Of a DNA stretch of 34,940 bases, positions 6,549-23,311 are shown piece by piece (the stretch's first letter is position 1; the number at the start of each line of letters is the position of its first letter). Below the pieces are notes generated by a model that saw nothing but the letters and a program-made list of their open reading frames with translations, was not told where the DNA came from and ran no database searches. This stretch comes from Pseudomonadota bacterium. Lineage in GTDB: Bacteria; Pseudomonadota; Gammaproteobacteria; Xanthomonadales; Xanthomonadaceae. The DNA is taken from contig JAFEEL010000024.1 of the NCBI GenBank assembly GCA_018241125.1, positions 1-34,940 of the forward strand. The letters are read 5' to 3'. Both the position numbers and the translations under genes were made by a program.

Positions 6549-6595
6549 GCATGTGGTGGCTCAACCGTTTGTGGTACGGACATGCGGTGACTCAA

Positions 6596-6749
6596 CCGTT
6601 CGTGGTGAGGAGGGTTTGTCGAAGCCGAAGGCCGAGCAAACCCGTCTCGAACCACGCTTGCCACGACCACGGACATGCGGTGACTCAACCGTTCGTGGTG
6701 AGGAGGGTTTGTCGAAGCCGAAGGCTGAGCAAACCCGTCTCGAACCACG
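6596..6749 (+). repeat. Two tandem 61-bp palindromic repeats (93-bp unit)
   Basis: Copies at 6596-6656 and 6689-6749 begin CCGTTCGTGGTGAGGAG and end GTCTCGAACCACG. The inner stem is GGGTTTG/CAAACCC and the outer stem CGTGGT/ACCACG. They lie in a 93-bp tandem duplication (about 6577-6667 and 6670-6760) that also includes CGGACATGCGGTGACTCAA upstream and CTTGCCACGACC downstream. The two copies differ in the loop (GGCCGAG versus GGCTGAG). The gene-free stretch 6471-6824 is essentially made of these repeats; the short ORFs across them are repeat translations. Confidence 0.85.
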
Positions 6750-6824
6750 CTTGCCACGACCGATGACGGCAGCATCGCAACCCCGATAGGCATGGCATCA
6801 TCACCCCATCGAACAGAGCAAACG

Positions 6825-7277: not shown

Positions 7278-7834
7278 GCAGCGGCTGCACCGCCCCGAGC
7301 GCCACCGCGTTGAGCTTGTGCGTGCTCACCGTCTCCGACTCGCGCACGCCCGCCAACGACACCTCCGGCGATTACCTCGTGCAGGCCTTGAGCGACGCCG
7401 GCCATCGCCTGCACGAGCGCACCCTGTTGCCGGACGACCGCTACCAACTGCGCGCTCTGGTTTCGCGCTGGATCGCCGATGCGGCGGTGGACGGCATCCT
7501 CATCACCGGCGGTACCGGCTTCACCGGCCGCGATTCCACGCCCGAGGCGTTGATGCCGCTGCTGGACAAGATCATGGATGGCTTTGGCGAGATGTTTCGC
7601 GCGATCAGCTACCAGCAAATCGGCACCAGCGCCATGCAGTCGCGCGCTTTCGCCGGGTTGGCCAATGGCACCTTCGTGTTCTGCGTACCCGGATCGACAT
7701 CGGCCTGCCGCACCGCTTGGGAACACCTGATCCGCGCCCAACTCGATGCCACCACCAAGCCGTGCAACCTGGTGGCGCTGCGGCCAAGGTTGCGAGAAAG
7801 TGCGGATGTTCGGGCTGAGAGACGAGAGACGTGA
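7274..7834 (+). CDS. moaB: Molybdenum cofactor biosynthesis protein MoaB/MogA
   Basis: A cytoplasmic MoaB/MogA fold protein, which in the family adenylylates molybdopterin before metal insertion. It is 186 aa. Key segments are [21 protein letters not shown] at 15-35, [19 protein letters not shown] at 75-93 (Asp87 is the conserved catalytic-type Asp) and [19 protein letters not shown] near residue 140. The last residues ([10 protein letters not shown]) run into a heptamer tandem array, and the TGA stop lies in its third unit (GTGAGAC), so array copy number could change the C terminus. No other molybdopterin genes are nearby, so the physiological role rests on family membership. It is coupled to the GNAT gene by a 4-bp overlap. 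Confidence 0.88.
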
Positions 7835-7907
7835 GACGAGAGACGAGAGACGTGAGACGAGAGACGAGAGACGAGAGACGAGAGACGAGAGACGAGAGAC
7901 GAGAGAT
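7817..7907 (+). repeat. Heptamer tandem array (GAGAGAC x13)
   Basis: Thirteen consecutive 7-bp units from 7817. Units 3 and 6 are GTGAGAC, the last is GAGAGAT and the rest are GAGAGAC. The first two and a half units are within moaB and supply its stop codon. No matching inverted array is visible downstream. Short tandem arrays of this kind change copy number easily by slippage. Confidence 0.95.
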
Positions 7908-11496: not shown

Positions 11497-11691
11497 GTCT
11501 CGGAATCCCCGTTCGTGGTGAGCAGCCGTCGATGCGTGCGCAGTGCGAGGCAGACGGCGTCTCGAAATCCCCGTTCGTGGTGAGGAGGATCGGGCGAGAA
11601 CGAAGTTCGAGCCGATCCGTCTCGAAATCCCCGTTCATGGTGAGGAGGATCGGTCGAGAACGAAGTTCGAGCCGATCCGTCTCGAACCACG
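11497..11691 (+). repeat. Tandem array of 60-62 bp palindromic units
   Basis: GTCTCG(A/G)A recurs at 11497, 11559, 11619 and 11679, giving periods of 62, 60 and 60 bp. Units start CCGTTCGTGGTGAG or CCGTTCATGGTGAG (11509, 11571, 11631). Inner stems are GCCGTC/GACGGC in the first and GGATCGG/CCGATCC in the second and third. Internal units end GTCTCGAAATCC; only the last ends GTCTCGAACCACG. The array occupies the gap between the divergent YihY and wrbA genes (11393-11936), together with a degenerate copy at 11720-11784. Confidence 0.88.
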
Positions 11692-14752: not shown

Positions 14753-16120
<1,368 letters not shown>

Positions 16121-16126
16121 AGGGAA

Positions 16127-16154
16127 GTGAATCGTGAATCGTGAATCGTGAATG
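16127..16154 (+). repeat. GTGAATC heptamer array, left arm (accC side)
   Basis: Four 7-bp units: three GTGAATC and one GTGAATG. It starts 6 bp outside the accC start codon and ends 2 bp before the stop of the four-helix-bundle gene. It is inverted relative to the array at 16533-16560; the two arms pair over 28 bp, with mismatches only at the seventh base of three units. Confidence 0.93.
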
Positions 16155-16156
16155 GT

Positions 16157-16546
16157 TCAAGGCCGGGCATCGGCAGCTCCGCGTCTTTCGAGGGCGTGGA
16201 TGAGCGCAGTCAGCTTTGCGAACAGTGAGTCGACTTGCTCGGCGATGGCTGGGTCTGTCGCGGCATAAAGCAGCCGGATCGCGATTTGCAGTTGGGTATC
16301 GAGTTCGGAAAGCGAGCCGCGGGCAATGGCGAGAAAGCGAAGTAGTTCGGGTGTTGAGCGTCGCGCTGCGCCTTCTGCGATGTTCGATGGAATGCTGACC
16401 GCTGATCGCCTGATTTGTGAGGTCAAACCGAAGCGTTCGCTGTCCGGGAATCGAGATGAGCAGGCGTAGATCGATTCCACCAGTGCCATGGCTTCCCGCC
16501 AGACATCCAGTTCCTCGTGTGGCCGCTTTTTCGATTCACTATTCAC
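16157..16546 (-). CDS. Four-helix-bundle protein (23S rRNA IVS-protein family)
   Basis: A 129-aa member of the family named after proteins encoded by 23S rRNA intervening sequences (S23/TIGR02436-like; related in fold to the Avd protein of diversity-generating retroelements). The signature is clear: RPHEELDVWREAMALVESIY, then FPDSERFGLTSQIRRSAVSI, PSNIAEGAARRSTPELLRFL and LSELDTQLQIAIRLLY. Biochemical function is unknown; some relatives bind nucleic acid. The start is probably GTG 16546, inside a GTGAATC heptamer array. Hand counts of three 60-base lines give about 60% G+C, lower than adjacent accC lines (63-75%), consistent with transfer. It interrupts accB-accC and is bracketed by inverted heptamer arrays. 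Confidence 0.88.
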   Translation of the reverse strand: MNSESKKRPHEELDVWREAMALVESIYACSSRFPDSERFGLTSQIRRSAVSIPSNIAEGAARRSTPELLRFLAIARGSLSELDTQLQIAIRLLYAATDPAIAEQVDSLFAKLTALIHALERRGAADARP

Positions 16547-16560
16547 GATTCACCATTCAC
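16533..16560 (-). repeat. GTGAATC heptamer array, right arm (accB side)
   Basis: On the minus strand the four units are GTGAATG, GTGAATC, GTGAATA and GTGAATC. It begins 5 bp after the accB stop codon, and the third unit contains the probable GTG start of the four-helix-bundle gene. It is the inverted partner of 16127-16154. Confidence 0.93.
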
Positions 16561-16565
16561 GCCTG

Positions 16566-17066
16566 TCACCCAATCACAAACAACGGCTCGTCGAACTCGA
16601 TCGGCTGGCCGGAGCTGGCCAGGATCGCCTTCACCGTGCCCGAGACGTCGGCCTCGATCGGGTTGAACATCTTCATCGCCTCGATGATGGCCAGGGTCTC
16701 GCCGGCTTTCACCGTCTGCCCGACTTTCACGAACGCCGGCGATTCGGGATTGGGCGAGGCGTAGAACGTGCCGACCATCGGCGAGCGCAGCACGTGGCCT
16801 TCGGGCAGTTCGCGCCCGCCCTTGCCCAGATGCGCCAGATCGGCGTGTGCAGGGGCCGGTGGCGCCGGATGCGGGGCGGCTGCGGGAACTGCCGTCGCAG
16901 CGGCGACCGGAACCGTCGCAGGCGCGGCGGCATAGGTCGGCACCGGCACGCCGCCCTTGGGCATGCGCGAGAGGCGGACGGATTCCTCGCCTTCCTTGAT
17001 TTCGATTTCCGCGAGGTTGGATTCGTCGAGCAGGTCGATCAGTTTCTTGATTTTGCGAAGATCCAT
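16566..17066 (-). CDS. accB: Acetyl-CoA carboxylase, biotin carboxyl carrier protein
   Basis: Carries biotin between the carboxylase and transferase sites of acetyl-CoA carboxylase. It is 166 aa. An N-terminal [20 protein letters not shown] segment is followed by an Ala/Pro linker (about residues 45-75) and a biotinyl domain with EAMKM, biotinylated Lys132, and the thumb-type segment [15 protein letters not shown]. The start has AGAGG upstream. In relatives accB is followed directly by accC; here the four-helix-bundle gene is inserted 19 bp after the accB stop. Confidence 0.97.
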
Positions 17067-21518: not shown

Positions 21519-21527
21519 TAGCCGAGC

Positions 21528-23311
<1,784 letters not shown>

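What the first reader, a model, noticed from the sequence alone, without database searches (positions are those of the whole stretch)
16127..16560. Four-helix-bundle gene bracketed by inverted heptamer arrays inside the accB-accC operon, laid out like a 23S rRNA intervening sequence
Seen: four GTGAATC-type units at 16127-16154 and four inverted units at 16533-16560 flank an ORF of the four-helix-bundle IVS-protein family. The arrays abut accC (6 bp) and accB (5 bp). The arms pair over 28 bp, with mismatches only at the seventh base of three units. Established: this protein family was first found in 23S rRNA intervening sequences, which are bounded by self-complementary arms that RNase III cuts. 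Inference: this could be the same kind of element living in an mRNA intercistronic gap, cutting the acc transcript and separating AccB from AccC expression. The accC start has lost a Shine-Dalgarno, and the G+C is lower than accC. I know of no description of this arrangement.
Basis: partly seen in the sequence, partly recalled or inferred. Interest (0 to 1): 0.8.

Follow-up and report, generated by a model that had tools for sequence, protein, structure and literature searches.

The report
Repeat-armed four-helix gene element in operons
A small gene of unknown function, found in many groups of bacteria, often sits between two mirror-image arrays of seven-letter repeats inside operons, and the gene and its repeats are inherited and swapped together, which points to a little-recognised genetic element that may have its own recognition code.

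Summary
Confirmed, and larger than reported. The accB-accC element belongs to a widespread class. PF05635 four-helix-bundle (FHB) genes lie between inverted tandem arrays, mostly of 7-nt units: 91 of 105 in the order and 43 of 69 elsewhere, against 3 of 315 and 3 of 207 control intervals; a second batch gave 32 of 40. All four FHB genes of this genome have arms, with four different heptamers. In 40 accB-accC elements both arms share a hexamer class (38 of 40) while the seventh base is often unmatched. The heptamer follows the FHB protein (5 changes on its tree), not the host operon (16 changes). Near-identical operons carry diverged cassettes, so gene plus arms is exchanged as one unit. FHB residue 68 tracks heptamer base 2 (13 of 14 in the second batch), suggesting direct recognition; phylogenetic independence is not shown. 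Gene-less arrays are dispersed genome-wide. With arms paired, accB stop and accC start lie about 6 nt apart; empty relatives have 3-11 nt. RNase III cutting is untested. Heptamers (Rehm 2015) and protein (XCC0516, 23S IVS) were known separately; my ten searches found no paper joining them. How it moves is unknown.

The parts
16127..16154 (+). array arm: four GTGAATN units (read as NATTCAC it is the 3' arm on the acc coding strand), 6 bp before the accC ATG
16533..16560 (-). inverted array arm: four GTGAATN units, 5' arm on the acc coding strand, 5 bp after the accB stop; contains the predicted GTG start of the FHB ORF
16157..16546 (-). four-helix-bundle (PF05635/TIGR02436) gene, 129 aa; residues 68 (Leu) and 113 (Thr) are candidate heptamer-reading positions
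16566..17066 (-). accB (biotin carboxyl carrier), upstream gene of the host operon
14753..16120 (-). accC (biotin carboxylase), downstream gene of the host operon; no Shine-Dalgarno-like tetramer upstream
21527..21651 (.). gene-less element of the same heptamer family (GTGAATN arms, 63-nt core) in this window

Best explanation
An intercistronic genetic element made of three parts that evolve as one unit: an FHB gene and two inverted arrays of tandem heptamers. SHOWN by comparison: such arms are the rule around FHB genes; an FHB lineage keeps its own heptamer; gene plus arms is replaced as a block at fixed operon sites; gene-less arrays of the same heptamers are dispersed in the genome. INFERRED: the FHB protein, which forms a five-membered ring in a solved relative and is related in fold to the Avd protein of retroelements, reads the arrays directly, perhaps one subunit per heptamer, with residue 68 sensing base 2 and residue 113 base 5. 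That recognition lets the element be exchanged, and gene-less copies spread, with help from an unidentified enzyme. It is tolerated inside operons because on the mRNA the arms pair and loop the gene out, putting the upstream stop and the downstream start back at about their original spacing.
For: Arms around FHB genes vs same-locus control intervals: 91/105 vs 3/315 and 43/69 vs 3/207; best lag 7 in 83/89 and 30/43. Second batch: 32/40 vs 5/157 cross pairs, lag 7 in 28/31. Six of 8 cyanobacterial plasmid FHB genes read reach score 30, a seventh 29. All 4 FHB genes of this genome have arms with different heptamers. accB-accC, n=40: both arms same class in 38; arms correlate at 0.90 and 0.95, 0 of 5000 shuffles. 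Heptamer class (5' arm / 3' arm): 16 / 18 changes on the AccB+AccC tree (shuffled 17.2 for the 5' arm), 5 / 6 on the FHB tree (shuffled 17.1). Nearest FHB shares class in 36/39, nearest AccBC in 18/39. L157/L028: AccBC fragments 100% identical, FHB 62%; DNA identity changes at about the accB stop and the accC ATG. 49 different-class pairs chosen for accC of 90% or more: cassette median 65%, flanks 90-93%. carA-carB shows the same. Residue 68: Tyr with GGGA 47/53, with GTGA 1/29; second batch 13/14. GGGAAT+GTGAAT hits: 20 or more in 12/15 genomes with an accBC-type FHB vs 1/23 without PF05635. Paired-arm spacing 6 vs empty 10 nt.
Against: No enzyme, target duplication or excision event was found; the FHB ORF has no other Pfam domain. 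Recombination in the flanks of old alleles can mimic block swaps; at carA-carB the edge after the 3' arm is not sharp (67.5% in the first 60 bp). On well-supported branches only 2 independent pairs bear on residue 68, one concordant, so co-evolution is not proven. Exceptions to the residue rule: 6 of 53 and 1 of 29, L252, L280 (strictly 2 of 3 plasmid copies fit). G005 has GGGAAT arms but 632 GGGATT vs 43 GGGAAT hits; G002 has GTGAAT arms but 219 GGGAAT vs 129 GTGAAT hits. Two of the 15 accBC-FHB genomes show no hit (their arms are GGGATT/GTGATT, not the heptamers counted), one genome without PF05635 has 32, and only 2 of 9 genomes with another FHB reach 20. At the nrd site FHB is antisense to the operon (13/13). 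RNA fold z -1.36. Arms below threshold in 14/105 and 26/69 and 8/40. One of 17 inverted pairs in the sample clearly has the opposite, C-rich-first polarity.
Confidence: 0.56

Rival explanations
1. One reading: an IVS-type element in mRNA. The arms form a duplex that RNase III cuts, removing the FHB stretch and separating AccB from AccC output.
For: Same protein family and inverted-arm layout as rRNA IVSs, for which RNase III excision was reported in Coxiella (PMC4990558 abstract and introduction); arms pair in the predicted fold.
Against: Seventh base unmatched in 17 to 26 of 40 elements, depending on the unit; arms recur in gene-less elements; paired arms would bring the genes together rather than apart. 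No RNA data here.
Confidence: 0.2
2. A regulatory system, not a mobile one: the FHB ring binds heptamer arrays in mRNAs, in the manner of TRAP (recalled), controls its own mRNA and those bearing dispersed arrays, and the swaps are allele exchange.
For: Ring of five subunits (literature) with tandem arrays, and a residue-base association; arrays mostly between co-directional genes in Xanthomonas (PMC4692102, section 10); the window FHB start lies inside an array.
Against: Rehm et al. say they could not identify a role of the repeats in gene regulation; the model does not by itself explain block replacement or dispersal of arrays.
Confidence: 0.27
3. FHB is a passenger. Arrays arise and homogenise by replication slippage and inverted-repeat gene conversion, and old alleles are kept and shuffled by homologous recombination.
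For: Heptamers may be slippage-prone, an earlier hypothesis quoted in PMC4692102; both arms change together, as inverted-repeat conversion would give.
Against: The heptamer follows FHB lineage, not site lineage; residue 68 predicts base 2 in the second batch.
Confidence: 0.2
4. G-quadruplex elements: arrays are selected for four G-tracts.
For: Preference for four units and G4 folding in vitro (PMC4692102 abstract).
Against: GTGAATN arms, as in this window, have no GGG tract yet the same four-unit inverted layout; many other arms lack GGG.
Confidence: 0.04

Closest known systems
rRNA intervening sequences with an S23p/FHB ORF (Leptospira, Coxiella, Brucella)
   Same: same protein family (PF05635), element of about 430 nt bounded by self-complementary arms, patchy distribution, recurrent sites
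   Different: lies in protein-coding operons, not rRNA; arms are tandem heptamer arrays; gene-less copies dispersed; cutting not shown
GGGNATC heptamer repeats of Xanthomonas and GGGGA(C/T)T of Nostoc (Rehm et al. 2015, PMC4692102)
   Same: same kind of arrays, four-unit preference, convergent inverted pairs (70 and 75 in two Xanthomonas genomes), mostly between aligned genes, groES among the repeat-associated genes
   Different: the terms 'four helix', '23S' and 'intervening' do not occur in that main text; in the parts read the arms are not tied to a gene, a residue or block swapping
Cyanobacterial STRR hairpins, e.g. between hupS and hupL
   Same: 7-bp tandem repeats forming hairpins, with translation coupling suggested (PMC2670836 passages)
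   Different: no FHB gene mentioned in the passages read
REPINs and RAYT transposases (Bertels and Rainey 2011, PMC3116915)
   Same: a gene linked to dispersed short inverted doublets that can form hairpins (abstract)
   Different: RAYT is an enzyme; FHB is not known to be; units here are tandem heptamers, not REP palindromes
Avd of diversity-generating retroelements
   Same: related fold (4dwl TM 0.65/0.74, Foldseek probability 1.00 but E 0.1; DGR RNP entries 8ube, 8ub7) and a weak PHROG match, E 7.6e-5
   Different: no reverse transcriptase or template repeat was looked for beside these FHB genes

Membership tests
PF05635 / TIGR02436 four helix bundle protein | score above the curated cut-off | tested here: met
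   116.4 vs 33.8 bits; 110.9 vs 24 bits
23S rRNA intervening sequence | inserted in an rRNA gene | tested here: not met
   lies between accB and accC; the only Rfam hit in the window is a tRNA at 631-702; no recalled 23S motif in any of 174 held loci
23S rRNA intervening sequence | bounded by self-complementary arms | tested here: met
23S rRNA intervening sequence | excised by RNase III without ligation | not testable with these tools
   needs RNA mapping
REPIN/RAYT | encodes a RAYT transposase | tested here: not met
   the element's ORF hits only 23S_rRNA_IVP in Pfam
REPIN/RAYT | dispersed gene-less inverted doublets of the same unit | tested here: met
   15 of 17 inverted pairs in about 433 kb of this genome lack a PF05635 gene; 37 pairs with loops of 15-200 nt in all loci held then
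Classical IS or MITE | target-site duplication | not tested
   empty accB-accC sites have only 3-11 nt between stop and start, too short and variable to read one by eye
Diversity-generating retroelement | reverse transcriptase with template and variable repeats next to Avd | not tested
   not searched for; only fold and family profiles were compared
Rehm GGGNATC quadruplex repeats | four G-tracts of three or more G | tested here: not met
   GTGAATN units have no GGG

The most novel reading that the evidence does not exclude
A class of protein-guided selfish elements spread over many bacterial groups: a non-enzymatic protein ring reads tandem heptamers by a short residue-to-base code, and with its matching arms it spreads, swaps lineages and seeds gene-less hairpins through operons, using the host's own enzymes.
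Probability: 0.35. Interest if true: 0.93.

Novelty: new variant of a known kind. Interest (0 to 1): 0.85.

Why it matters
It joins two open puzzles: what the FHB/S23 family does (XCC0516 solved in 2006; 'no known function' in PMC4990558) and what the abundant bacterial heptamer repeats are (role 'remains to be elucidated' in PMC4692102). It gives testable predictions: specific binding, a residue-68 switch, and re-coupled translation. It also offers another reading of FHB genes that were listed among CRISPR-associated functions (PMC3936711, passages): three of the eight plasmid copies read here sit in cas or cmr gaps, two with clear arms and one just below threshold.

Tried and rejected
Generic G4 function: rejected for this lineage, since GTGAATN has no G-tract. 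Phage origin: no tblastn match in 50,697 phage records. Defence gene: no PADLOC family. Conserved inner motif in gene-less cores: weak, 9 and 8 of 28 ends against 3 and 4 in the middle, so not claimed. Phylogenetically independent test of residue 68: too few supported pairs. Strand calls of neighbours by majority frame were unreliable in GC-rich DNA and were replaced by best-score frames. The first arm table did not orient minus-strand loci; corrected from then on. Residue numbers are one too low; corrected.

Rows dropped: 14 of 188 FHB hits lacked flanks or were duplicates; 92 of 174 elements were outside the residue-68 table because arms were weak, not period 7 or not GKGA, and 26 of 40 in the second batch, which contains near-duplicates such as L239/L240 and comes from the same list of genomes as part of the first; L039 was left out and L039 and L033 out; 3 of 20 genomes (two TT, one mixed) were left out of the GT/GA comparison and 16 of 60 genomes with unknown FHB status out of the presence test, where G278 and G301 were taken as lacking PF05635 because one search does not list them among its matches. 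The 40 accBC, 17 carAB and 13 nrd elements are orthologous groups, so the 174 are not independent. Arm scores are ungapped and gapped.

Full report
WHAT IS IN THE WINDOW. The element at 16127-16560 is as described: four GTGAATN units, an ORF of the four-helix-bundle family on the minus strand, and four inverted units, between accB and accC on the same strand. The 27-nt array pattern is absent from 100 shuffles. A second, gene-less copy of the layout lies at 21527-21651, and a 13-unit array of another heptamer at 7817-7906.

THE WHOLE GENOME. GTGAATNGTGAAT occurs 159 times in this 3.07-Mb genome and the reversed control 0 times. In about 433 kb (the window plus 20 stretches from contigs already known to hold arrays or an FHB gene, so not a random sample), tandem arrays passing a fixed score numbered 47 for period 7 and 0 for periods 4, 5, 6, 8, 9 and 10; periods 11-13 gave 1, 4 and 4, 15 gave 10, and 14, a multiple of 7, gave 32. 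Inverted pairs numbered 17 for period 7 against 0-1 for six other periods. The genome has four PF05635 genes, and all four are bracketed by inverted heptamer arrays of different sequence: GTGAATN (accB-accC), CGGGACT (carA-carB), GTGAGCG (S-adenosylhomocysteinase - MTHFR; only about two units per arm) and GTGAANN (a pair whose upstream protein has no Pfam hit). Heptamers equal or close to all four also occur as arrays elsewhere in the sample.

GENERALITY. 174 elements with both flanks were scored (188 hits, 14 dropped). Inverted arms reach the threshold in 91 of 105 from the order and 43 of 69 from other groups, against 3 of 315 and 3 of 207 same-length intervals elsewhere in the same loci, and 64 of 626 and 7 of 408 arms paired across loci. 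The best lag is 7 in 83 of 89 and 30 of 43 (8 in 8 of 43). The 5' arm has more G than C in 92 of 92 and 45 of 46. Many of the 105 are orthologous (40 accBC, 17 carAB, 13 nrd), so they are not independent; the 69 from other groups are more diverse. A second batch of 40 loci, fetched after these rules were set but from the same genome list, gave 32 with arms (cross pairs 5 of 157), lag 7 in 28 of 31. Eight cyanobacterial plasmid copies were read out of 30 records with matches: 6 reach score 30, L285 reaches 29, L286 has none; they lie in gaps such as nrdB-nrdA, cas6-cas4 and cmr2-cmr3.

SITES. Of 116 elements whose two neighbours could both be called, 95 lie between two genes reading the same way as FHB, 13 between two reading the other way (all in the ribonucleotide reductase group), and 8 are mixed. 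Pfam supports the identity of the biotin carboxyl carrier/biotin carboxylase, GATase/carbamoyl-phosphate synthase, S-adenosylhomocysteinase/MTHFR and ribonucleotide reductase small and large chain neighbours, each in one representative; other site names are my reading of translations. The Nostoc plasmid copy sits antisense between annotated ribonucleotide reductase beta and alpha genes, the same arrangement as L014 in the window's order.

GENE AND ARMS ARE ONE UNIT. At accB-accC, 40 elements were aligned. Both arms have the same state at positions 2 and 5 in 38 of 40; the arms correlate at 0.90 and 0.95 with no shuffle of 5000 as high; the seventh base matches in only 15, 23, 14 and 20 of 40. 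The class of the 5' arm needs 16 changes on the AccB+AccC tree, hardly fewer than shuffled labels (17.2; as low in 58 of 200), but 5 on the FHB tree (shuffled 17.1; as low in 0 of 200). L157 and L028 have identical AccB/AccC fragments but 62% identical FHB and different heptamers, and their DNA identity drops at about the accB stop and recovers at the accC ATG. Over 49 different-class pairs, chosen for accC identity of 90% or more, medians are 90-93% in the flanks and 65% in the cassette. At carA-carB, L057/L046 show 93.9% flank DNA and 62.5% FHB identity with GGGACCC versus GGGACTC arms, while L169/L057, both GGGACCC, share 87% FHB; there the first 60 bp after the 3' arm are only 67.5% alike, so that edge is less sharp.

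EMPTY AND GENE-LESS STATES. Of 60 family genomes 58 had an accB match and loci were returned for the best 30. Their accB-accC gaps are: 12 empty (stop to ATG 3-11 nt, median 10); 11 of 442-535 bp, of which 10 coincide with PF05635 hits and one (L213) I read as FHB from its sequence; 5 of 94-152 bp, of which L227, L230 and L231 have inverted arms at score 30 or more and L211 and L215 score 22 and 24; and 2 other. In FHB elements the stop-to-arm plus arm-to-start distance is a median of 6 nt (interquartile 5.5-13.5, range 2-20, 39 of 40 measurable), the 3' array touches the accC ATG in 26, and no Shine-Dalgarno-like tetramer precedes accC in 40 of 40. Pairing of the arms would thus bring stop and start back to about the empty-site spacing; this is inference. 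Translation coupling has been suggested for 7-bp-repeat hairpins of cyanobacteria (PMC2670836, passages).

DISPERSED ARRAYS AND THE FHB. In 47 genomes of the family, GGGAAT plus GTGAAT hits reach 20 in 12 of 15 with an accBC-type FHB, 2 of 9 with another FHB and 1 of 23 without PF05635. In the genus, G001 has GGGAAT arms at accBC and 147 GGGAAT against 15 GTGAAT hits; G000 has the reverse (7 and 159); G003 has GTGAAT arms with 97 and 650; G002 has GTGAAT arms but 219 GGGAAT against 129 GTGAAT; G004, 71% complete and without FHB, has 1 and 4. Between GT-type and GA-type genomes the GGGATT share differs (8 vs 9 genomes, one-sided p 0.012), and within four genera all 8 comparisons agree, some by small margins, with G005 a clear exception overall.

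RECOGNITION. Among 82 elements with period-7 GKGA heptamers, residue 68 is Tyr in 47 of 53 with GGGA and 1 of 29 with GTGA (Fisher 5e-15, which ignores relatedness); it is the alignment column with the highest mutual information with base 2 (0.59, next 0.38), and residue 113 is the highest for base 5 (1.13, next 0.96). The second batch fits the residue-68 rule in 13 of 14 usable cases. Of the plasmid copies with GGGA or GTGA units, L281 and L284 fit and L280 does not. Only two independent pairs lie on well-supported branches, one concordant, so shared descent is not excluded.

THE PROTEIN. The model of the window protein (pLDDT 92) matches XCC0516 (2gsc), BT_0352 (2rld) and, more weakly, Avd (4dwl; 8ube, 8ub7; E about 0.1, probability 1.00). 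XCC0516 is described as a toroidal homopentamer in a paper whose introduction I read (PMC4990558). The element's ORF has no Pfam hit other than 23S_rRNA_IVP.

LITERATURE. Ten searches of an open-access library found the heptamers (PMC4692102: abstract, passages and sections 10 and 16 read), other heptamers in Beggiatoaceae (PMC4679880, passages), the FHB protein in rRNA IVSs (PMC4990558, abstract and introduction), in cas loci (PMC3936711, passages) and in CPR rRNA insertions (PMC11270868, passages), STRR hairpins (PMC2670836, passages) and REPINs (PMC3116915, abstract). None of what I read joins the protein to the heptamers; subscription papers were not searchable.

VERDICT. A real and widespread class, IVS-like in parts and REPIN-like in behaviour. 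Arms and block inheritance are well supported; recognition is likely; mobility mechanism and RNA processing are open.

Noticed in passing
window 7817-7906: 13-unit tandem array of another heptamer (GAGAGAC); no FHB gene of this genome lies there.
   Followed up: no
window 21527-21651: Gene-less GTGAATN hairpin just before what I read as groEL (groES is among Rehm's repeat-associated genes).
   Followed up: partly
window 6576-6761 and 11558-11686: Direct repeats of 93 bp (2.0 copies) and 60 bp (2.2 copies) by TRF.
   Followed up: no
L281, L283, L285: FHB genes in cas6-cas4 and cmr2-cmr3 gaps on cyanobacterial plasmids, two with clear inverted arms and L285 just below threshold; may explain why this family was listed among cas-associated functions (PMC3936711).
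   Followed up: partly
L024: An FHB gene whose 103-nt arms are built of a much longer unit that itself contains small palindromes.
   Followed up: no
L220 (G122 accB-accC gap): A 338-bp insert in the accB-accC gap that shows no long inverted arms.
   Followed up: no
L280 and L014: FHB antisense between ribonucleotide reductase small and large chain genes both in Nostoc and in the window's order: the same site and orientation in two phyla.
   Followed up: partly
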